Source of the DNA: Planctomyces sp. SH-PL14
GTDB lineage: Bacteria > Planctomycetota > Planctomycetia > Planctomycetales > Planctomycetaceae
Length of the DNA stretch: 64,000 bases
Assembly (NCBI RefSeq): GCF_001610835.1
Contig: NZ_CP011270.1
Location: 6,156,001 to 6,220,000, forward strand
Direction of reading: 5' to 3'
The first letter of the stretch is position 1. The number at the start of each line of letters is the position of its first letter. Of the stretch, positions 40,844 through 50,496 are shown piece by piece. Under the pieces are notes generated by a model. That model had not been told where the DNA came from. It saw only the letters and a program-made list of their open reading frames with translations, and did no database searches. Made by a program: the position numbers and the translations under genes.

Positions 40844-41166
40844 GATCAAACCGCGTCCTCGCCGGCGCGGCTCGATAGCTCAAACCCAACGTGCGACGGC
40901 CACTGGGGTCAAGGGGGTCTCACCCCCTTGCCGCCGGAGGCACTTCCATGAGGAACCGTTGTAGACAACGGGCATCCCCTTTGTGGGAGCGGCGTTGAAG
41001 ATTCTTCGCTCGCTCTGTAATCCCCGCGGGTTGGTGAAGGGGGCATACGGCATGGTGTCCGCGCTTGGACACGCCCTCCTTCAGACATCTCTCGACGGTC
41101 AGGCCTCCGGCGGGCAAAGGGGCGTTGCCCCTCTGCACTCCCCACCAGGGTGCCCCTGGACCCGGT
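40844..41166 (-). repeat. 320-bp structured repeat, copy 9
   Basis: Full-length copy on the minus strand, starting on the base after the trxB stop codon. It leaves about 100 bp before the kinase start codon. Confidence 0.92.
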
Positions 41167-41269
41167 GAGGCGGTGCTCCTCTGTCGTCTGGCAACGACGG
41201 ATGGTAAGATCCAGCCACGAATCGGGCTTCTCGCGCTCAGCGGAGCCCGTTCCAGCCGGGCGCTCTTTC

Positions 41270-43465
41270 ATGCCGATGTCCTTGGATGAGTTCTGTGCTC
41301 ACCTCGACGAGACCGGTCTCGTTTCGTCTTCGCAATCGTCCAAGGTCTGGGAAAAGTCCGGCGCCATGGACGCCCGCGAGATGGCGACCGCCCTCGTCAA
41401 AGCCCAGCTCCTCTCCGCCTTCCAGGCCGAACAGGCCTACAAAGGACGCGGCAAGTCCCTCTTCATGGGGAACTACTTCATCCTCGACAAGCTCGGCGAA
41501 GGGGGCATGGGACTCGTCCTCAAGGCCCGCCACCGCCGCATGGACCGCCTCGTCGCCCTCAAGGTCCTCTCTCCCAAAGTCATCAAGTCCAAGGAACTGC
41601 TCGGCCGGTTCCAGCGGGAAGTCCGGGCCGCCGCCCGGCTCGAACATCCCAACATCGTCGCCGCCTACGACGCCGACGAAGCCAACGGCAGCCACTTCCT
41701 GGTCATGCAGTACGTCGACGGCGACGACCTCCAGTCGCGCGTCAAACAGCACGGCCCCCTCTCGGTCGAGGAAGCGGTGAACTGCGTCCTCCAGGCGGCG
41801 CGAGGCCTGGAATACGCCCACCAGCGCGGGGTTATCCACCGGGACATCAAGCCGGCCAACCTCCTCCTCGATCGCGGCGGGACCGTCAAGATCCTCGACA
41901 TGGGACTGGCCCGCCTGGAAGGAGCCGGCGAGATCGGGAAGCAGGCGGAGCTGACCTCGACCGGCGCCGTCATGGGGACCGTCGACTACATGGCCCCCGA
42001 ACAGGCGCTCAGCACCAGGAACGCCGACGCCCGCAGCGACATCTACTCGCTCGGCGTCACGCTCTGGTACCTGCTGATGAAGCGCTCGCTCTACACCGGC
42101 GAGTCGCTGATGGCCCGGATGCTGGCCCACCGCGAGTCACCCATCCCGCTTCTCGGCGAGGGGCGAAACGACGTCCCCGCGGCGCTCGACGCCGTGTTCC
42201 GGAAGATGGTCTCCAAGCGGCCCGAGCACCGCTTCCAGACGATGGGCGAAGTCGCCGCCGCGCTCGAAGCCTGCCGCCGTCCAGGAGCGAGCTCAGGGCT
42301 CTTCGAACTGTCGGAACGGATGGTCCGCGCCAGCGAGAATCAGGAGCTCGACGCCTTCGTCGGACTCTTCGACGATTCGTCCCCCTCCTCGACCGCGTCT
42401 CCCTCGGGAACCGGAAGCGGTGTCAGTGGGAGTGGCAGTGGCAGTGGCAGTGGCAGTGGCAGTGGCAGCGGCAGCGGTCCGGGACGATCCCAGGCATCGC
42501 CCCCGACGACGCCGATGCACAGCCCGTTTGAATCCACCGCGCTCTCCGGCGGAGGACTGGAGAGCGACACCGACGGCACGATCCTGTCGCGGATCTCCCG
42601 TTCCCGGACCATGCGGGCCCAGCGCCCCGTGGTGTGGTGGCTCGACTGGCGGCTTCACGCCGCGGTCGGAGCGGCGGTGCTCCTGATCGCCTTTATCGTC
42701 TTCTGGTTCCGGGGGAACGCACCGGCCGCGAATGGCGCCGGAAAGAACGCTCCCGACGCGCCCCCGTCCGGCGTGCCGGTCCCGAGCGGTCCCCGGGTGA
42801 ACCACGCCCTGGCGTTCGACGGCCACTTCTCCTACGTCACGGTTCCGACGCTGCGGTTCAAGGAGGACCGCCCGTGGACGCTCGAGCTCCGCTGCCGCAA
42901 GCTGCTCCCGCTCGGGATCAGCGCCGTGGCGACGCTGCGGAACGGGACGCACTGGCTGGGACAGTACACCGAGGCGGGCCGGAGCCTGGGGGGCTTCGGC
43001 GGGCCGACGCACGGAATGACCCAGTACGCCTACCGGACCGTTCCCGAGACCCATCCGGCGGAGGAGTGGATCCATGTCGCCGTCACCTGGGACGGGATGA
43101 ACGTCGGCACGTTCGTGAACGGCGAGGTTCCGGAGGGCTCCTTCGGGGAGCCGATCGACGCGCGATGGGGGGCGGAGATGCGCCCCTGGGTGATCGGGCA
43201 GCCGGAGTTCGTTCTCGGAGCGGCCCCCACCGCCCAGCCGGGGCGGTTCCTCAACCACTTCATCGGGGAGCTCGACGAAATCCGGCTCTCGTCGGTGAAT
43301 CGCTACCGCGGCCCGTTCAAGGTTCCGGAGGCGATCCATCCGGACGAATACACCGTCGCTCTCTACCACTGCGACGAGGGGACCGGCACCGTGCTCAAGG
43401 ACTCGACCGCCAACGGCCACGATGGGGTGATTTCGGGCGCGACGTGGGTTCCGGCGGGGCCGTGA
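41270..43465 (+). CDS. Ser/Thr protein kinase with membrane helix and LamG-like lectin domain
   Basis: 731 residues. A cytoplasmic N-terminal helical domain is followed by a Hanks-type kinase ([13 protein letters not shown] glycine loop, LVALKVL lysine, [13 protein letters not shown] catalytic loop, ILDMGLARL with DMG in place of DFG, and MAPEQAL), then a Ser/Gly linker, one membrane helix (about 465-483), and an extracytoplasmic LamG/concanavalin-like domain (about 500-725; [48 protein letters not shown]). This resembles a receptor kinase sensing a carbohydrate or protein outside. The linker is coded by a hexanucleotide tandem repeat. Confidence 0.93.
42425..42478 (+). repeat. AGTGGC tandem hexanucleotide repeat inside the kinase gene
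   Basis: Nine units: one AGTGGG, six exact AGTGGC, then AGCGGC and AGCGGT. It codes for an alternating Ser-Gly linker between the kinase domain and the membrane helix. Because the unit is six bases, length changes would keep the frame. Confidence 0.92.
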
Positions 43466-43748: not shown

Positions 43749-44654
43749 TCACTTCATCTCGAAGAACGCGGTCACGGTCGGCTCGCCGGACAGGTAGCCG
43801 AGCGATGTCAGGAAGCGGTCCATCGACTCCGTCGTCTTGAGGAAGTCGGCGCTCCCCTTCCGGCCGTAGTTGAAGAAGCCGTGCTCGCGGTCCTCGTAGA
43901 GGTCGAGATCGCAGCGGTTTCCCGCGGCTTTCATTCGCTCGACGAACTGGCGGTTCCCGGCGATGAGGAAGTCCTTCGTGCCGATCAGGACGAGAGCCGG
44001 CGGCAGCCCCGGCTGGACGTGATGTGCGGGGGAGAGTTTTTCCGGCTCGACTCCCATTCGCTCCGACAGGCCGGCTGCGCGGCGATCGTCTCCGGCGAGG
44101 GCGGGATCGAACGAGACCGCGGGGTTGAAGAGGACCATCGCGTTCGGGCGGGACGAGACCGACGGGTCTTCTTTCGCGTCGTCGAACTCGGAGATCACCC
44201 CGGCACAGGCCGCGAGGTGTCCGCCGGCCGAGCCTCCGCCGGCGGCGAGGCGCTGGGGATCGATGCCGAGTTCCTTGGCGTGGCTGCGGACCCAGCGGAT
44301 GGCGGACTTGGCGTCGCGGACGCATTCGACCGCTTTGACGCCCTGGCGGCTCGCCACGCGGTAGTCTGCCGTGATGGCGACCATGCCTCGCGAGGCGAGG
44401 TAGCGGCACTGTTGTTCGAACTGGGTGGGGGAGCCGTTCTTCCAGCCGCCGCCGAAGAAGAAGACGATGGCGGGGCGGGAGTCGGTCGGCTGGTGATCCT
44501 TTGGGGTGAAGACCCAGAGGGACAGCTCGGTCCCTTCGACGGTCTTGTAGACGTGGGACTTGGCTTCGTTGAGAACGGGGGGGTAGGTCCGCTGCGCGGC
44601 GGCCGGGGAGGCGAGGACCGCGACGAGGGCGGCGGCGAAAAGGAGGCGAGCCAT
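43749..44654 (-). CDS. Secreted alpha/beta-hydrolase (acetyl-esterase/BD-FAE-like)
   Basis: 301 residues with a clear signal peptide ending at AAAQ. The oxyanion region is FFFGGGWKNG, the nucleophile motif is GGGSAGGH (Ser in GxSAG), and the C-terminal part keeps the catalytic Asp (GTKDFL) and His (DREHGFFNYG). This is the HSL/acetyl-esterase type often found in planctomycete polysaccharide degradation. Start 44654 is supported by GGAGAAC just upstream; an ATG at 44669 is in frame. Confidence 0.88.
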   Translation of the reverse strand: MARLLFAAALVAVLASPAAAQRTYPPVLNEAKSHVYKTVEGTELSLWVFTPKDHQPTDSRPAIVFFFGGGWKNGSPTQFEQQCRYLASRGMVAITADYRVASRQGVKAVECVRDAKSAIRWVRSHAKELGIDPQRLAAGGGSAGGHLAACAGVISEFDDAKEDPSVSSRPNAMVLFNPAVSFDPALAGDDRRAAGLSERMGVEPEKLSPAHHVQPGLPPALVLIGTKDFLIAGNRQFVERMKAAGNRCDLDLYEDREHGFFNYGRKGSADFLKTTESMDRFLTSLGYLSGEPTVTAFFEMK

Positions 44655-44746
44655 GCGTTCTCCAAGCATTTGGCAGAGCGTTCGATGAGTCCAGGCGGCG
44701 CAGTCACTTTACCGCAGTCGAGCTTCATCGAAGAGGGAAGCCCCTA

Positions 44747-45080
44747 ACCGGGTCCAGGGGCACCCTGGTGGGGAGTGCAGAGGGGCAACGCCCCTTTGCC
44801 CGCCGGAGGCCTGGCCGTCGAGAGATGTCTGAAGGAGCGCGTGCCCAGACGCGGACACCGTGTCGTATGCCCCCTCACCAACCCGCGCGGATTCCAAAGC
44901 GAGCGGTGAGTTCTCAACGCCGGTTCCACAAAGGGGACGTCTGTTGTTTCCCACGGTTCCTCATGGAAGTGCCTCCCGCGGCAAGGGGGCCAAGAAACAA
45001 CACAGGCCCCCTTGACCCCGGCTGCCGTGGCATATTGGGTTTGACGTAGCAACGCCGCGCCGGCAAGGACGCTGTTGGGC
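44747..45080 (+). repeat. 320-bp structured repeat, copy 10 (altered loop)
   Basis: Full-length copy whose right-hand G/C hairpin carries the loop CAAGAAACAACACAG (near 44990-45012) instead of a few bases. The same loop, with one extra base, occurs in the left-hand hairpin of copy 2. Confidence 0.92.
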
Positions 45081-45133
45081 AAAAGAACTTTTGCGGAAAT
45101 GTGTTGACCCTCCGTCGCCCGACCGATACGGTT

Positions 45134-45166
45134 TATATCGTCACGCGATATATCGCATGGCGATAT
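45134..45166. promoter_or_regulatory. Two overlapping palindromes, PadR operator candidate
   Basis: TATATCG-TCACG-CGATATA (45134-45152) overlaps ATATCGC-ATG-GCGATAT (45150-45166); both are perfect 7-bp dyads. A TTGACC at 45104 could be a -35 box just upstream. The AT-rich dyad lies 55 bp before the padR start codon and fits PadR autoregulation. Confidence 0.72.
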
Positions 45167-45220
45167 GTCGGTCCGCGGAAGACGGGGTGTTTCGAAGAGG
45201 GCGGTGGAGGGAGTCCCGGA

Positions 45221-45586
45221 ATGGCCATCGATTCGGAGCTGCTGCGGGGAAGTCTCGACCTGCTCGTGTTGTCGGTCCTCTCCGGCGACCCGCAGTACGG
45301 CTACCTCATCCAGCAGAAACTCAAGGAGTCGACCGGGGACCGGGTCGACCTCTCGGCCAGCACCCTCTATCCGTTGCTCCACCGGCTGGAGTCGGAGAAG
45401 CTCGTCAAGGCGGCCTGGGACGACCAGACCGGCCGCAAACGGAAGTGGTACTCCCTCACCCCCGCGGGACGCCGGGCCCTCACGCAGCGGGCCCGGCAAT
45501 GGCAGGACTATGCCGATTGCCTGCGGCAGGTCCTGGCCCCCATCCTCGATGGCGGTCCCAAGCGGATTGCGGAAGGTCCGTGTTGA
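45221..45586 (+). CDS. PadR-family transcriptional regulator
   Basis: 121 residues, the size of the short PadR-s2 type. An N-terminal winged helix (LLRGSLDLLVLSVLSG, QYGYLIQQKLKESTGDRVDLSASTLYPLLHRLE) is followed by a beta wing (WYSLTPAGRRAL) and a C-terminal dimerisation helix. PadR proteins of this kind usually repress the next gene, which encodes a HAAS-domain protein, and their own gene. The start is ATG 45221, just downstream of overlapping palindromes likely bound by the protein. Confidence 0.93.
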   Translation: MAIDSELLRGSLDLLVLSVLSGDPQYGYLIQQKLKESTGDRVDLSASTLYPLLHRLESEKLVKAAWDDQTGRKRKWYSLTPAGRRALTQRARQWQDYADCLRQVLAPILDGGPKRIAEGPC

Positions 45587-45604
45587 TGGTGAGTTGCCGG
45601 TTTT

Positions 45605-45665
45605 CAGTCGTCAGTTCTCAGTCAGAGAAGCGACGTCCGGACTGGCAACTGAGAACTGATGACTG
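45605..45665. repeat. 18-bp inverted repeat between padR and its partner
   Basis: CAGTCGTCAGTTCTCAGT (45605-45622) and ACTGAGAACTGATGACTG (45648-45665) pair with one mismatch, leaving a 25-base loop. It could modulate expression between padR and the HAAS gene. Confidence 0.75.
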
Positions 45666-45716
45666 ACAACGCCCCCCTATCCTGAGCGTTCTGCTCGCGC
45701 GCTTTCGGAGTTCATC

Positions 45717-47858
45717 ATGTCCGAACAGGAATTCGATCTCTATCTGCGGCTGATGTCGCGGCTTCTTCGGCTCAGCAAGGACCAGGAGGCGGCGATCGCG
45801 GATGAGCTCCGCGACCACATGGAGGAGCGGTTCACGGAACTGCTCCGCGCCGGACTGACGCGGGAACAGGCGATCGAACGGGCCCTCGGCGAATTCGGCG
45901 ACGCCGCTGGACTCGCCCGCGAGTTTTCCTCGCTCGCCTGGCGGAAGCGGCGGCGGTTCTGGACGCGGGTCTCGCTCGCATCGGCCGTCACGGCGGCTGG
46001 CGTGGCGATCGGCCTCGTCAGCTTCTGGCCCCGCCCGGGCTTTGTCCCGCTCATCGCCAATCCGCTCCTGGCGGACAACGACGCCGAGAAGATCACGAAG
46101 CCGGCCGCCGAGTCGCCGGCGGAAGAGAACTCCGCTCCGTCGGAGGCCTCCGGGCTCGTGATCCACTCCAGCGCGAAGGCCGGCCTGCCGCGGGAACTCA
46201 CGATGCCGGTCAGCCTCGAGCTGGTGGACGTGACGCTCAAGGAACTGACCGACCACCTGAGCCAGACGACCGCGCTTCCGATCAAGTTCGACGCCGCAGT
46301 CACCGAGGCCGGAGTCAATCCCGAAGAGGCCCGGACGAAGCTGATCACCAGCGGTCCGCTGTTCGAAGTCCTCGACCGATTGTTCGATGACACCATCGAG
46401 GGGAACCTTCTCAGCTGGACCTATCGTGACGGACTGATCCACATCACGACCGAGGACGATATGGTCGGCCGGCTGTTCGTCCGCTCGTACGACGTTTCCC
46501 CGCTCGTCGCGCACGGGATTGCCGTGGAAGCGGTCGCCGGCCTGATTCCCGGCGCGACCTCCGGTTCGTGGGACATCGAGGAGCCGGGGACGTCGACCAT
46601 CAATCCCCTGGGGCGGCGGCTCGTCATCAAGGCGGACTTCCGGCAGCATCGGAAGATCGCCGGACTCCTGGCGGGCCTGCAGTCGATCTTCGGCAGCAAG
46701 ACCGACGTGATCCTGACGGACGAACCGGAGTCGACGCTGCAGATTCCGGAGATGCTCCGCAAGCCGGGCAGCTTCGAGTTTCCCGACAACCCTCTGGCGG
46801 AAGTGGGCCAGTGGATCCTGGAGACGCAGCGTGTTCCGATCCGGTTCCACTCCAGCGTCGTCGAGGCGGGAGTGAATCCCGATGAGGCCAGGATCAACCT
46901 CACCCTGCTGAATAAGCCCCTGTCGGTCGTGCTGGGGCTGATGCTGGAGAATGTCCAGGGAACAGAACTGGAAGCGGTCCCGCACCTCGGGGAGCTTTCG
47001 GTGATGACGGCGGACACGGCGTACGGGCTTTACGCGACCGGTGTCTACCGCATCCGGGCCTTCGAGGAGGCGGATGTCACGACGGAGCTGATTGCCGCGA
47101 TCTACGCCACGACCGGCCCGTGGGACCGGGACGAACCCGGCACCGGAACGCTCCAGCAGCCGCATCCCGGCGTCCTTGTCATTCGCCACACCGCCCGCGT
47201 TCACGCCGAGATCCAGCGGCTGATCGCCGAGCACCAGAAGACGCTCGTCGCCGTGACTCCCGAGGAACGGGCGGAGCGCGACCGGCACTTTGAGATCCGG
47301 CTCTACCGCCTCAAGGGGGAGTCCGAGGACGATATCGTCCAGATCATCCAGACGACGGTCGAGCCCGAAAGCTGGAACAGCATCACCCCGGGCGGCGAAG
47401 CCTCCTGGACCCGGATGGTCCACATCAACCGGCCTTCGGACCTCATCGGCGCCGGACTCGGCGGCGGCGGCTTCGGCGGCGGTATGGGGGGAGGCTTCTT
47501 CCAGATCGGCGGTGCCCCGGTCGTTACGCCCCCTGGAGGGCCCGGCGCACCAGCCGCCGCTCCGACGAACGGTCCCGGGACTTCCTCCGCTCCGATGACC
47601 GGCGGGGGCGGCATGGGGGGAGGCGGCATGGGAGGCGTGGGGGGGGCCGGCGGCATGGAGTCCAAGAAAGAGGCGGCCTTCGAGCCGACGACGGTGCTCC
47701 TCGTCCGCAACACGCACGGCGTCCATCGCAAGATCGACGCGCTCCTGCATTCGATCCGTCGCAAGGCGCTCATGCCGTTCGACTCCCCGAGCGCTCCATC
47801 GCTGGAACCGATTCCCGAGTACGGCACCGTCTTCAAGCTCCCCGGCAGCGGCGGCTGA
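45717..47858 (+). CDS. HAAS-anchored protein with two STN/secretin-N-like units
   Basis: 713 residues, apparently a novel arrangement. Residues 1-75 form a helical domain (LSKDQEAAIADELRDHMEER, then a GLTREQAIERALGEFGD pattern) of the HAAS or permease-prefix type found beside PadR regulators. One membrane helix follows (about 85-104). Outside are two similar units (about 150-325 and 335-510), each with an STN-like part and a secretin-N-like part; compare FDAAVTEAGVNPEEARTKL (191-209) with FHSSVVEAGVNPDEARINL (377-395). A Gly/Met-rich stretch near 580-655 and a third secretin-N-like end follow. CGGAG precedes ATG 45717. No pore-forming secretin domain is present. Confidence 0.82.
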   Translation: MSEQEFDLYLRLMSRLLRLSKDQEAAIADELRDHMEERFTELLRAGLTREQAIERALGEFGDAAGLAREFSSLAWRKRRRFWTRVSLASAVTAAGVAIGLVSFWPRPGFVPLIANPLLADNDAEKITKPAAESPAEENSAPSEASGLVIHSSAKAGLPRELTMPVSLELVDVTLKELTDHLSQTTALPIKFDAAVTEAGVNPEEARTKLITSGPLFEVLDRLFDDTIEGNLLSWTYRDGLIHITTEDDMVGRLFVRSYDVSPLVAHGIAVEAVAGLIPGATSGSWDIEEPGTSTINPLGRRLVIKADFRQHRKIAGLLAGLQSIFGSKTDVILTDEPESTLQIPEMLRKPGSFEFPDNPLAEVGQWILETQRVPIRFHSSVVEAGVNPDEARINLTLLNKPLSVVLGLMLENVQGTELEAVPHLGELSVMTADTAYGLYATGVYRIRAFEEADVTTELIAAIYATTGPWDRDEPGTGTLQQPHPGVLVIRHTARVHAEIQRLIAEHQKTLVAVTPEERAERDRHFEIRLYRLKGESEDDIVQIIQTTVEPESWNSITPGGEASWTRMVHINRPSDLIGAGLGGGGFGGGMGGGFFQIGGAPVVTPPGGPGAPAAAPTNGPGTSSAPMTGGGGMGGGGMGGVGGAGGMESKKEAAFEPTTVLLVRNTHGVHRKIDALLHSIRRKALMPFDSPSAPSLEPIPEYGTVFKLPGSGG

Positions 47859-47890
47859 GGTGAATCGGGGAGAGGTCCGGACGCCGCATC

Positions 47891-47976
47891 GCGGGAGGGC
47901 GAGGCTCCCGCCGAGCCGCAACGCTGTCGAACGCCGTTGGAACCTGCGCGGCTCAGCAGGAGCTTCGCCCTGCCGA
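47891..47976. repeat. GGGAGGGCGAGGCTCC inverted repeat, copy B
   Basis: The left arm CGGGAGGGCGAGGCTCC plus CGCCGAGCCGC and the right arm GCGGCTCAGCAGGAGCTTCG plus CCCTGCCG form a 28-bp stem with about five mismatches or wobble pairs. Same family as 26981-27131. Confidence 0.85.
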
Positions 47977-48109
47977 TTGGCGATGATCATTCGCAGGTCC
48001 GCGCCCGGGAATGGTTGTTGCGTCCGCCTCCTTCGGCACGGGCCTCCGGGCGTCTCCGTGAGCGGCCTTCGTGCCGTTCAGACTGTCTGATTCAGATAAG
48101 GAGCCTGTC

Positions 48110-48427
48110 ATGCCTCGGGGAGACAAGTCGGCATACACCGACAAGCAGAAACGCAAAGCGGAACACATCGAAGAGTCCTACAAGGACCAGGGCGTGTCCG
48201 ACAAAGAGGCCGAACGCCGGGCCTGGGCGACGGTGAACGCCACCGATCACGGCGGGAAGAAGAGTGGTTCCGGACGGGGCAAGGAATCGAATCCGGAACC
48301 GTCCCGCAAGGGAGGTCGGAAAGGAGGGGCGGCGTCCGCCCATCGGACCGCCGCCGAACGCTCCGCCTCGGCTCGTAAAGGGGCCGCCACCCGCAAGAGG
48401 AACGCGGCCGCTGCGGCTCGCTCGTAG
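48110..48427 (+). CDS. Small basic 'plasmid stabilization'-type protein with KGG motif
   Basis: 105 residues, highly charged. The N-terminal half (GDKSAYTDKQKRKAEHIEES, AERRAWATVN) matches a widespread small family often annotated as plasmid stabilization protein. The C-terminal half contains KGGRKGGAASAHRTAAERSA and an Ala/Arg/Lys tail like histone H1 or KGG stress proteins, suggesting nucleic-acid binding. AAGGAG lies 7 bases ahead. No partner toxin gene is adjacent, so the annotation as plasmid maintenance should be taken loosely. Confidence 0.85.
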   Translation: MPRGDKSAYTDKQKRKAEHIEESYKDQGVSDKEAERRAWATVNATDHGGKKSGSGRGKESNPEPSRKGGRKGGAASAHRTAAERSASARKGAATRKRNAAAAARS

Positions 48428-48465
48428 TCATCGTCTTCGTTCTTTCCAGAACACCCTTCCAATGA

Positions 48466-48499
48466 AAAACGCCGTGATGAATGTTCATCACGGCGTTTT
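48466..48499. terminator. Bidirectional terminator
   Basis: AAAACGCCGTGATGAA (48466-48481), loop TG, TTCATCACGGCGTTTT (48484-48499): a perfect 16-bp stem with T or A runs on both sides, placed between two convergent genes. Confidence 0.9.
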
Positions 48500-48568
48500 C
48501 GTCCGGAGGAGGCCGGACAGTCTTCTGAGGCGACTACCGGGATTCGCCCTGGGGCGATGCCGGGGGTT

Positions 48569-49489
48569 CTACTCGTTCTTCTTGTCGGCGTTGTTGCGGT
48601 TCTGCCGTTCTTCGCGGCGGGCCGAGCGATCTTCCTTGTCGGCGTGCTTGTCCAGCTTTTCCATGACGTCGATCGCGTGCTTCATGTGCTTCTCGGCGGT
48701 CTCGCGGCCTTCCGACAGGACCTGGGCCAGGTCGCCCGAGGCATGCCGTTCCAGGACCGTCAGCTTGTCTTTCATCGCCGCGTGCTTGGCGATCTGCATC
48801 CCGATGAAGCACTGATCGACCTCATGATCCTTCTTGTCGTTCAGCATTTCCTTCGACGAAGCCAGGCACTGCTGAGCGATCTCGCGATGGACCTGCATGA
48901 AGTCGAGTCCGGCCGCATCGCCGCGGAAGCCGGTGGTCCGCTGGACGGGGGTGGCGGCGTTCGGGTTGGCCGCCACGTTCCGGTCCTGGTTGTTCCGATC
49001 GCGCTGCGTCGTGCTCTTGTCCTCGCGATCCGTTGAGTTCAAGAAGCCATTATCCGTGGATGCGTTCGGTGCAAAGCGGTCGAGCTTGGCGAGGAACGCC
49101 GAATGGTCCTTCACCATCATGTCGGCGAACTCTTTCGCCTCGTCGCTATGCAGTTTGTCCTTCGCGAACTTCGAGAGCGCGATCTCGCCCTGGTTGTCGA
49201 TCGCAACGCACTGGGCGATCGTCTGTTCCTTGTTCTGCCACTGTGCGTTGCCAGCGGCCTGTTCACCTGTTCGCTGAACGTTCTGGGGTTGTGCCTGAAC
49301 CCGTTGCCCTGGCTGGACCTGGACGCCCGGCTGACGCTGACCCGGCTGGACCTGTCCAGCTTCGCGGGCCCGGTTGGCCGGATTCGCATCTTCTGCCGCA
49401 GCTTTGCCGGGCGGCGTCTGTTGCGCCATGGTGACACCTGTCACGCACAGCCCCAAGGCGGCCGCCATCACTCCCTTTGCAAGCTTCAT
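48569..49489 (-). CDS. DUF4142 exported protein
   Basis: 306 residues with a signal peptide ending near VTMAQQ. A Gln/Pro/Val-rich low-complexity stretch follows (about 45-75; repeated QPGQR/VQPGQ). The two-part DUF4142 domain (EIALSKFAKDKLHSDEAKEFADMMVKDHSAF near 105-135 and LDFMQVHREIAQQC near 200) is interrupted by a 45-residue Asn/Asp/Arg-rich linker. It should be a ferritin-like helical bundle in the periplasm; function unknown. GGGAGAG lies just ahead of ATG 49489. Confidence 0.88.
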   Translation of the reverse strand: MKLAKGVMAAALGLCVTGVTMAQQTPPGKAAAEDANPANRAREAGQVQPGQRQPGVQVQPGQRVQAQPQNVQRTGEQAAGNAQWQNKEQTIAQCVAIDNQGEIALSKFAKDKLHSDEAKEFADMMVKDHSAFLAKLDRFAPNASTDNGFLNSTDREDKSTTQRDRNNQDRNVAANPNAATPVQRTTGFRGDAAGLDFMQVHREIAQQCLASSKEMLNDKKDHEVDQCFIGMQIAKHAAMKDKLTVLERHASGDLAQVLSEGRETAEKHMKHAIDVMEKLDKHADKEDRSARREERQNRNNADKKNE

Positions 49490-49715
49490 GATTCTCTCCC
49501 CTCGCGTGTCTTGTCGGCTGGGCACGCTCTCAACCTGTCGAACTCCTCGCCCGGCCGTCGTGCCCATCGAAGGTGGTCGCAAACCCAATGCCCGCGCCAG
49601 CCAGCCAGCCAGCGTCCCGCTGGACCGGGTGGCCGTGGAGCGATGGGATTGAGGTGGCGGGGGTCGTGCCGGCGAGCGCGCGGTTTGGGCAGGGGGAGCA
49701 GGTCGCTGACCAAGA

Positions 49716-50037
49716 ACCGGGTCCAGGGGCACCCTGGTGGGGGATGCAAGGGGGCAACGCCCTCTTGCCCGCCGGAGGCCTGGCCGTCGAGAGATGTCTG
49801 AAGGAGTGCGTGTCCAAACGCGGACACCGTGCCGGATGTCCCCTCACCAACCCGCTGGGATTGCAAAGCGAGTGGTGAGTCTTCAGCGCCGGTCCCACAA
49901 AGGGGACGTCCGTTGTGTCCCACGGTTCCTCATGGAAGTGCCTCCGGCGGCAAGGGGTCGAAACCCCTTGACCCCAGCGGCCGTCGCACGTTGGGTTTGA
50001 GCTGACAACGCTGTGCCGGCGAGGACGTTGTTCAAGC
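49716..50037 (+). repeat. 320-bp structured repeat, copy 11
   Basis: Full-length copy between the divergent DUF4142 and cupin genes. The rest of the gap, 49490-49715, contains no recognised gene. Confidence 0.92.
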
Positions 50038-50121
50038 GAGACGGACGCGGGCTTGAGTTCCTCCACGCACCGGCGGAACAATCGCAACACAGGATCCCGA
50101 TTCCTCGCACAATCGCCCGCC

Positions 50122-50496
50122 ATGCAAACCGGCTTCATCGACCTCGCCCGCCTGACCCCCATCTCGCCCGTCCCCGGCTGCCGGATGCGGACGCCGTTCG
50201 GGCAGAACCTCATGCTCTCCTACTTGGAGATGGACAACGGCGCCGAAGTCCCCCTCCACCACCACCCGCATGAGCAGGGAGGCATCCTCATCCGCGGCCG
50301 CCTCCAGCTCACGATCGGCGACGAGACCCGCGTCGTTGAAGCCGGATCGCTCTTCCTGATCCCCTCCAACGTCCCGCACCGCGCCGTGGCGATCGACGGC
50401 CCCGCCACGGTCCTCGATGTCTTCAGCCCCGTCCGCGAAGACTACGCCGAGCTCACGAACCGCTACATCCCGCCGCTCGAAGCCCCCGCCGGTTAG
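50122..50496 (+). CDS. Cupin-domain protein
   Basis: 124-residue single-domain cupin. The metal motif is PLHHHPHEQGGILIRGRLQLTIG and the second is LIPSNVPHRAVAIDG, giving the usual His/His/Glu-type/His site. Small cupins of this kind act as sugar epimerase-like, dioxygenase-like or binding proteins; the sequence does not decide. ATG 50122 has no clear ribosome binding site. Confidence 0.88.
   Translation: MQTGFIDLARLTPISPVPGCRMRTPFGQNLMLSYLEMDNGAEVPLHHHPHEQGGILIRGRLQLTIGDETRVVEAGSLFLIPSNVPHRAVAIDGPATVLDVFSPVREDYAELTNRYIPPLEAPAG

What the first reader, a model, noticed from the sequence alone, without database searches (positions are those of the whole stretch)
45717..47858. PadR-linked HAAS membrane protein with duplicated STN/secretin-N-like units
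A HAAS-like N-terminal domain usually precedes a permease or signalling domain. Here one membrane helix is followed by two similar units, each with an STN-like and a secretin-N-like half, marked by FDAAVTEAGVNPEEARTKL and FHSSVVEAGVNPDEARINL and by the paired (E/D)EPGT...(R/G)xLVI segments. STN domains normally receive signals from outer-membrane receptors or belong to secretins. Without a pore domain, this may be a new sensor or docking protein under PadR control.
Basis: partly seen in the sequence, partly recalled or inferred. Interest (0 to 1): 0.7.

Follow-up and report, generated by a model that had tools for sequence, protein, structure and literature searches.

The report
Self-regulating PadR membrane sensor with secretin domains
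Planctomycete bacteria carry a compact two-gene switch in which a DNA-binding repressor sits next to a membrane protein whose outer part is built from duplicated docking modules of secretion pores; it may be a new way to link the cell envelope to gene control.

Summary
The 713-aa gene (45717-47858, +) follows padR. It encodes a HAAS-like helical domain, one membrane helix, two duplicated N0(STN)-N1(secretin_N) units and a third, split N1-like half. The units are 33% identical over 160 aa. The secretin-type fold is supported by a profile match to PilQ N0, by matches to N0 and N1 of a pore-bearing secretin in the same genome, and by structure models.

New here: padR lies upstream on the same strand in 26 of 29 relatives; the other three have under 420 bp of upstream sequence. 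Three CNATATATNG boxes 15 bp apart precede padR in 26 of 27 upstreams. A model of them puts its best site before this operon in 17 of 17 genomes, 7 of them not used to build it. The switch looks self-regulated and nearly self-contained.

The plan (cytoplasmic regulator-binding domain, membrane helix, periplasmic STN) parallels PupR/FecR sigma regulators, with PadR replacing the sigma factor. No TonB-receptor plug was found in this genome. It is not a secretin (no pore). It is a variant HAAS-PadR dyad: GxP reads GD(A/V). HAAS-PadR contact, partner and signal are inferred.

The parts
45131..45170 (+). Triple operator: three 10-bp boxes (consensus CNATATATNG) at exact 15-bp spacing, 45131-45140, 45146-45155 and 45161-45170, ending 50 bp before the padR ATG
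   Evidence: Conserved in 26 of 27 padR upstreams; best site in this genome with model R1
45221..45586 (+). padR: stand-alone PadR-family winged-helix regulator, 121 aa
   Evidence: Pfam PF03551 E 1.8e-22; start codon chosen from alignment of relatives
45717..47858 (+). HAAS-TM-(N0-N1)2-N1' membrane protein, 713 aa (whole gene)
45717..45941 (+). HAAS-like (perm_prefix_1) helical domain, residues 1-75, predicted cytoplasmic
   Evidence: NCBIfam NF038403 E 1.9e-11; three helices in the model, pLDDT about 65-85 over residues 1-60, lower after 65
45969..46025 (+). Single transmembrane helix, about residues 85-103
   Evidence: Hydropathy and K/R count before/after 6/1
46194..46466 (+). N0 (STN) domain of unit 1, residues 160-250
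   Evidence: Profile match to PilQ N0 4ar0 E 8.4e-5; fold matches PupR 6ovk Z 8.5, FpvA 2o5p Z 8.3
46473..46697 (+). N1 (secretin_N) domain of unit 1, residues 253-327
   Evidence: Model pLDDT 92.8; the top 11 VIA rows are secretins, Z 7.1-7.7
46758..47024 (+). N0 (STN) domain of unit 2, residues 348-436
   Evidence: Fold matches a FecR-like anti-sigma factor 4m0h Z 9.8, rmsd 1.7, 73 aa; PilQ N0 4ar0 Z 8.7
47028..47255 (+). N1 (secretin_N) domain of unit 2, residues 438-513
   Evidence: Duplicate of unit 1; aligned in A4
47286..47771 (+). Third N1-like half, residues 524-685, split by a low-confidence Gly-rich stretch (about 574-654) that holds GGGFF
   Evidence: hhalign with N1b E 2.5e-8 over 28 columns; strands and helices at 525-573 and 655-683 in the model

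Best explanation
This is a self-regulated two-gene signalling module. PadR represses its own operon from a triple operator. The second gene makes an inner-membrane protein whose HAAS-like domain faces the cytoplasm and whose periplasmic part is a string of secretin-type N0-N1 docking domains. The most likely working is that the N0-N1 string binds a periplasmic partner (a secretin, another N0-N1 protein, or itself). The bound or free state passes through the single membrane helix to the HAAS-like domain, which captures or releases PadR and so sets how much of the membrane protein is made. Shown by computation: the fold, the homology to secretin N0 and N1, the conserved gene pair, the operator and its near-uniqueness per genome. 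Inferred: topology, HAAS-PadR contact, the partner, and the direction of the signal.
For: N0: family profile A1 hits PilQ N0 (4ar0, E 8.4e-5), profile A2 hits PilQ 6w6m E 2.3e-5, models match FecR-like and PupR STN domains and secretins. N1: the top 11 of 50 VIA rows are secretins, Z 7.1-7.7. The family N0 and N1 profiles both hit a 1475-aa protein of the same genome (57.1 and 34.0 bits) that has the Secretin pore (E 3.3e-21). padR upstream on the same strand in 26 of 29 relatives; in another set in 17 of 20 HAAS-bearing loci and 0 of 17 HAAS-less paralogue loci. Operator in 26 of 27 upstreams; in 17 of 17 genomes the best-scoring site lies before this operon, 7 of 7 outside the training set, with padR behind it in each of those 7. 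In this genome 4 of 6 PadR genes above the cut-off sit next to a HAAS match, with different attached parts. The published model of HAAS-PadR dyads (PMC11237479, passages) predicts this sort of coupling.
Against: No contact between HAAS and PadR was tested. The GxP motif proposed as the PadR-contact groove reads GD(A/V) here in all 32 aligned rows that have a residue. The HAAS part of the model is only moderately confident, and residues 65-82 are under pLDDT 50. No partner gene is linked to the operon in this window. If PadR controls only its own operon, the system has no separate output gene, which suits a dosage-controlled docking protein as well as a sensor. One of 27 upstreams (L063) lacks the operator; G044 and G003 gave no operator match. 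One L038 relative has a 755-bp gap between padR and the gene.
Confidence: 0.6

Rival explanations
1. It is a structural docking or assembly protein. The N0-N1 string scaffolds a secretin or pilus-like machine from the inner membrane; PadR only sets its dose and the HAAS-like domain is a feedback tag, not a signal receiver.
For: N0-N1 are docking and ring-forming domains of secretins (recalled; PDB titles). The genome has 11 Secretin-domain matches. The operator model finds no second strong site in most genomes, so no other target genes are evident. In Listeria the PadR repressors LstR and LltR mainly regulate their own operons (PMC6624303, abstract and passages).
Against: Paralogues with the same N0-N1 units but without HAAS have no padR nearby (0 of 17 loci within the fetched flanks), so PadR tracks HAAS, not the docking units. 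Other HAAS proteins beside PadR in this genome carry quite different attached parts.
Confidence: 0.3
2. Classical cell-surface signalling: the STN domain receives a signal from a TonB-dependent outer-membrane receptor.
For: The closest folds include STN domains of PupR, PupA, FpvA and a FecR-like protein.
Against: No Plug domain (PF07715) at E up to 0.01 in this genome, while the same search rang in 3 of 14 control genomes. The regulator gene is padR, not a sigma factor.
Confidence: 0.03
3. It is a decayed secretin that has lost its pore domain.
For: N0-N1 order as in secretins and no Secretin domain.
Against: The reading frame is intact and the same architecture recurs in many genomes, with a HAAS-TM front end that the matched secretin lacks.
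Confidence: 0.02

Closest known systems
HAAS-PadR dyads (Ravi et al. 2024, PMC11237479; passages seen)
   Same: Stand-alone PadR gene next to a membrane protein with an N-terminal three-helix HAAS-type domain, fused to a module in the sensor position.
   Different: Sensor module is tandem secretin N0-N1, not among those in the passages seen (Toastrack, PspC, LiaI-LiaF-TM, FtsX-like, FtsW/RodA, VanZ, pentapeptide; no 'stn' or 'planctomycet' in that text). GxP reads GD(A/V). A triple operator is described here.
FecR/PupR-type sigma regulators (PMC7186176; abstract and passages seen)
   Same: Same plan: N-terminal cytoplasmic regulator-binding domain (PupR 1-82; here 1-75), one TM helix (PupR 86-104; here about 85-103), periplasmic part with an STN domain.
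   Different: PadR instead of a sigma factor; two N0-N1 units instead of CJM plus one STN; no TonB-receptor plug found in the genome. Works like it at most; not a member.
Secretins (PilQ, GspD and the same-genome protein L139:2107-6534)
   Same: Homologous N0 and N1 domains in the same order.
   Different: No pore domain; HAAS and TM helix at the front; N0-N1 unit duplicated.
HAAS-less planctomycete N0-N1 repeat proteins (L002, L003, L004 in this genome)
   Same: Same N0-N1-N0-N1-N1' order; these are the closest sequence relatives in this genome.
   Different: No HAAS, no padR found nearby; N-termini look like signal peptides (by eye).

Membership tests
HAAS-PadR dyad | HAAS-superfamily domain recognised by a curated model | tested here: met
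   NCBIfam perm_prefix_1 above cut-off (43.6 vs 30 bits); Pfam HAAS below cut-off (20.6 vs 27 bits)
HAAS-PadR dyad | Three-helix core | tested here: met
   Helices 3-17, 21-44 and 49-102 in the model, moderate confidence; residues 65-82 under pLDDT 50
HAAS-PadR dyad | Conserved GxP motif in helix 3 | tested here: not met
   GD(A/V): position 63 is A in 26 and V in 6 of 32 rows with a residue, never P. So it is called a variant, not a canonical member
HAAS-PadR dyad | Neighbouring stand-alone PadR gene | tested here: met
   Window and 26 of 29 relatives
HAAS-PadR dyad | HAAS transmits a signal to PadR | not testable with these tools
   Needs binding and reporter assays
Secretin | N0 (STN) domain | tested here: met
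Secretin | N1 (secretin_N) domain | tested here: met
   Foldseek alone gave no match at E <= 0.001 for the N1 model
Secretin | C-terminal pore domain PF00263 | tested here: not met
   No Pfam match at E up to 5
FecR/PupR sigma regulator | N-terminal cytoplasmic domain, one TM helix, periplasmic STN | tested here: met
   architecture of PupR from PMC7186176. Topology here is predicted
FecR/PupR sigma regulator | Cognate ECF sigma factor gene next to it | tested here: not met
   The upstream neighbour is padR; no sigma factor among the ORFs assigned between 41150 and 48427
FecR/PupR sigma regulator | TonB-dependent transducer partner | tested here: not met
   No Plug domain at E <= 0.01 in the genome

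The most novel reading that the evidence does not exclude
A PadR-based counterpart of cell-surface signalling: a membrane-held repressor system, built independently of sigma regulators, in which secretin-type N0-N1 repeats serve as the periplasmic receptor and report the state or assembly of an outer-membrane secretin or N0-N1 partner to a self-contained promoter.
Probability: 0.3. Interest if true: 0.78.

Novelty: new variant of a known kind. Interest (0 to 1): 0.6.

Why it matters
If right, it gives planctomycetes, which have few described envelope-sensing routes, a defined two-gene system with a known operator that can be moved to a test host. It would extend HAAS-PadR signalling to secretin-type receptor domains. 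It would also show that the plan 'regulator-binding domain, one membrane helix, STN' arose with a repressor as well as with sigma factors. The proposed partners (secretins and N0-N1 repeat proteins) are directly testable.

Tried and rejected
The single-protein scan of genome contigs found no relative; the second scan with alignment A1 gave 29 loci. Pfam names none of the periplasmic part. A TonB-receptor partner was looked for and not found. A wider PadR regulon was looked for: in this genome only two further sites, both with 2 mismatches, matched the two-box pattern. In 25 genomes 4 isolated 3-mismatch sites lay elsewhere. With model R1 nine weaker places in 6 of 17 genomes had E 0.15 to 2.4; all were treated as chance and not examined. 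Only 150 candidates per genome were scored. The control (pattern read backwards) gave 13 matches against 65 real ones; its places are not listed and some may be the operator itself, as the pattern is nearly symmetrical. The five other PadR genes of this genome above the cut-off do not show the triple box well (6 to 10 mismatches of 18 against 2). Foldseek alone gave no match at E <= 0.001 for the N1 model, and ribosomal proteins and KH-like folds follow the secretins closely in VIA (Z 7.0 against 7.1-7.7), so the N1 fold rests also on sequence. Rfam found nothing at 44600-50300. Papers: searches for 'HAAS domain' with 'STN domain' gave 0 papers, 'permease prefix domain' 0, 'DUF1700' with 'PadR' 2; (PadR, secretin, membrane, HAAS; 3 of 4 terms) listed 10 of 432, in which I saw only titles and abstract beginnings. 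The library holds open-licence papers only. Rows dropped: L063 was left out of the motif counts because it lacks the operator; the register of some sites was moved by one 15-bp box so that the boxes follow TTGA.

Full report
What is there. The ORF at 45717-47858 (+) is intact and encodes 713 aa. Its first 75 residues match NCBIfam perm_prefix_1 above the cut-off and Pfam HAAS below it. A hydrophobic helix follows near residue 85 with 6 K/R before and 1 after, so the HAAS-like part is probably cytoplasmic and the rest periplasmic. padR, 121 aa, lies upstream at 45221-45586.

The duplication is real. Residues 160-340 and 341-515 align at 33% identity over 160 aa, E 2e-22; family profiles of the two units align at E 6e-42; a third N1-like half follows, split by a Gly-rich stretch.

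The fold. With an 18-sequence alignment the whole-protein model reaches pLDDT 75-91 in most of residues 170-510, with a dip near 63-75 around residues 200-230, but only 67.6 on average; the Gly-rich part and linkers are low. VIA places residues 352-433 on a FecR-like anti-sigma factor (4m0h, Z 9.8, rmsd 1.7, 73 aa) and on PilQ, and residues 162-251 on PupR, FpvA and PupA (Z 8.1-8.5). Some phage and T4SS proteins score as well (Z 7.9-8.6), so fold alone is not decisive. Sequence helps: profile A1 hits PilQ N0 (4ar0, E 8.4e-5). The N1 domain alone models at pLDDT 92.8, and the top 11 of 50 VIA rows are secretins (Z 7.1-7.7; the next row, a ribosomal protein, Z 7.0). Foldseek gave no N1 match at E <= 0.001.

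A bridge to real secretins. Family N0 and N1 profiles hit one protein of the same genome, L139:2107-6534 (-), 1475 aa, with 57.1 and 34.0 bits (a small database of ORFs from 21 loci). It has the Secretin pore (E 3.3e-21) and sub-threshold STN (E 6.1e-4) and Secretin_N (E 0.033) matches. Of the other secretin loci given to that search, none gave both matches; their flanks are only 1500 bp.

The gene pair. In 29 relatives found by one scan, padR lies upstream on the same strand in 26; gaps are 28-225 bp in 25 and 755 bp in one. The three without it (L046, L049, L056) have 160, 182 and 419 bp of upstream sequence. In a second, partly overlapping set from one family, padR was found in 17 of 20 HAAS-bearing loci and in 0 of 17 HAAS-less paralogue loci, within 1500 bp at most; some of those loci overlap or are cut by contig ends. 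Relatives have one or two N0-N1 units; some loci carry a second HAAS gene in tandem. Record titles name Planctomycetaceae, Schlesneria, Pirellula, Rhodopirellula and Phycisphaeraceae bacteria, among others.

Spread. In the window's family 80 of 170 genomes match the whole protein at E <= 1e-10 (at most 6 candidates scored per genome). In the phylum 295 of 392 genomes match profile A1 at E <= 1e-8, mostly through N0-N1 alone (the match list is cut). Matches that start at the HAAS end and reach into N0 occur in other families too, for example G466, G237 and G361.

The operator. Upstream of padR, three boxes CNATATATNG stand exactly 15 bp apart. Among periods 8-23, 15 fits best (mean 3.37 mismatches of 18; next 5.3 at 17). 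Against 200 dinucleotide shuffles per locus, 23 of 27 upstreams were never reached, 3 were reached twice, and L063 is chance-like. Four columns are invariant in 26 sites. The loci are related, so counts are not independent, but the boxes vary while the spacing does not. Many sites follow a TTGAC, so box 2 would overlap the -10 region (inference). Published PadR operators are ATGT/ACAT inverted repeats with 8-10 bp between (PMC3506622, passages); these boxes are similar but not the same.

The regulon. In this genome the two-box pattern with up to 2 mismatches hits this place three times and two other places with 2 mismatches; the reversed control gives 0. In 25 genomes, 23 have a match with up to 3 mismatches; in 22 the site precedes the family gene and in G084 it precedes padR on another contig; every one of the 30 operator loci fetched has padR beside it. 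Model R1, built from 26 sites, puts its best site before this operon in 17 of 17 genomes (150 candidates scored in each). Seven of these share no near-identical locus with the training set and all seven have padR behind the site; the other ten were in the training set. Nine weaker places in 6 genomes have E 0.15 or more. So PadR most likely controls mainly its own operon; weaker targets are not excluded.

Modularity. Of 6 PadR genes above the cut-off in this genome, 4 have a HAAS match next to them: this one; one with a carboxypeptidase-regulatory-like domain below the Pfam cut-off; one apparently multi-helix protein (by eye); and one with two adjacent HAAS proteins with Ig-like parts. Two of the four rest on HAAS matches below the cut-off.

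How it may work. The plan equals that of PupR (anti-sigma domain 1-82, TM 86-104, periplasmic STN; PMC7186176, passages), with HAAS and PadR in place of anti-sigma domain and sigma factor. Published work proposes that HAAS passes a sensor's state to PadR (PMC11237479, passages). The partner here is more likely a secretin or N0-N1 repeat protein than a TonB receptor. HAAS-PadR contact, partner and direction of signal are inferred, and the missing GxP proline counts against a simple transfer of the published contact model.

Noticed in passing
window 44746-44993, 49715-49962 and about 11 more places in the window: A dispersed repeat of about 245 bp. It matches 29 places in 174 kb of this genome (14 in the window, one only 40 bp), at 75-93% identity apart from the query itself; 40 copies at 87-94% were scored genome-wide of 1125 first-look candidates. 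No Rfam match at 44600-50300. At that density it would be a sizeable part of the genome.
   Followed up: partly
C-termini of two-unit relatives (e.g. L039, L041, L042, L045, L046); internal in the window protein near residues 585-590: Many two-unit proteins end in a Gly-rich tail closing with GGGFF or a close variant; the window protein carries GGGFF inside its Gly-rich stretch. Unexplained; may be a sorting or protease signal.
   Followed up: no
L090:6920-9571 (same genome): A von Willebrand factor A protein (VWA_3 E 5.2e-15) carries a related N0 domain and ends in a Gly-rich GGFF stretch.
   Followed up: no
L088:9217-12830 (same genome): Two adjacent HAAS-less proteins, each with two N0-N1 units and a third N1-like half; tandem copies also occur in other genomes, e.g. 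G069.
   Followed up: partly
window 41150-43465: Serine/threonine kinase (E 1e-50) with a weak C-terminal lectin-like match and a Ser-Gly repeat linker.
   Followed up: no
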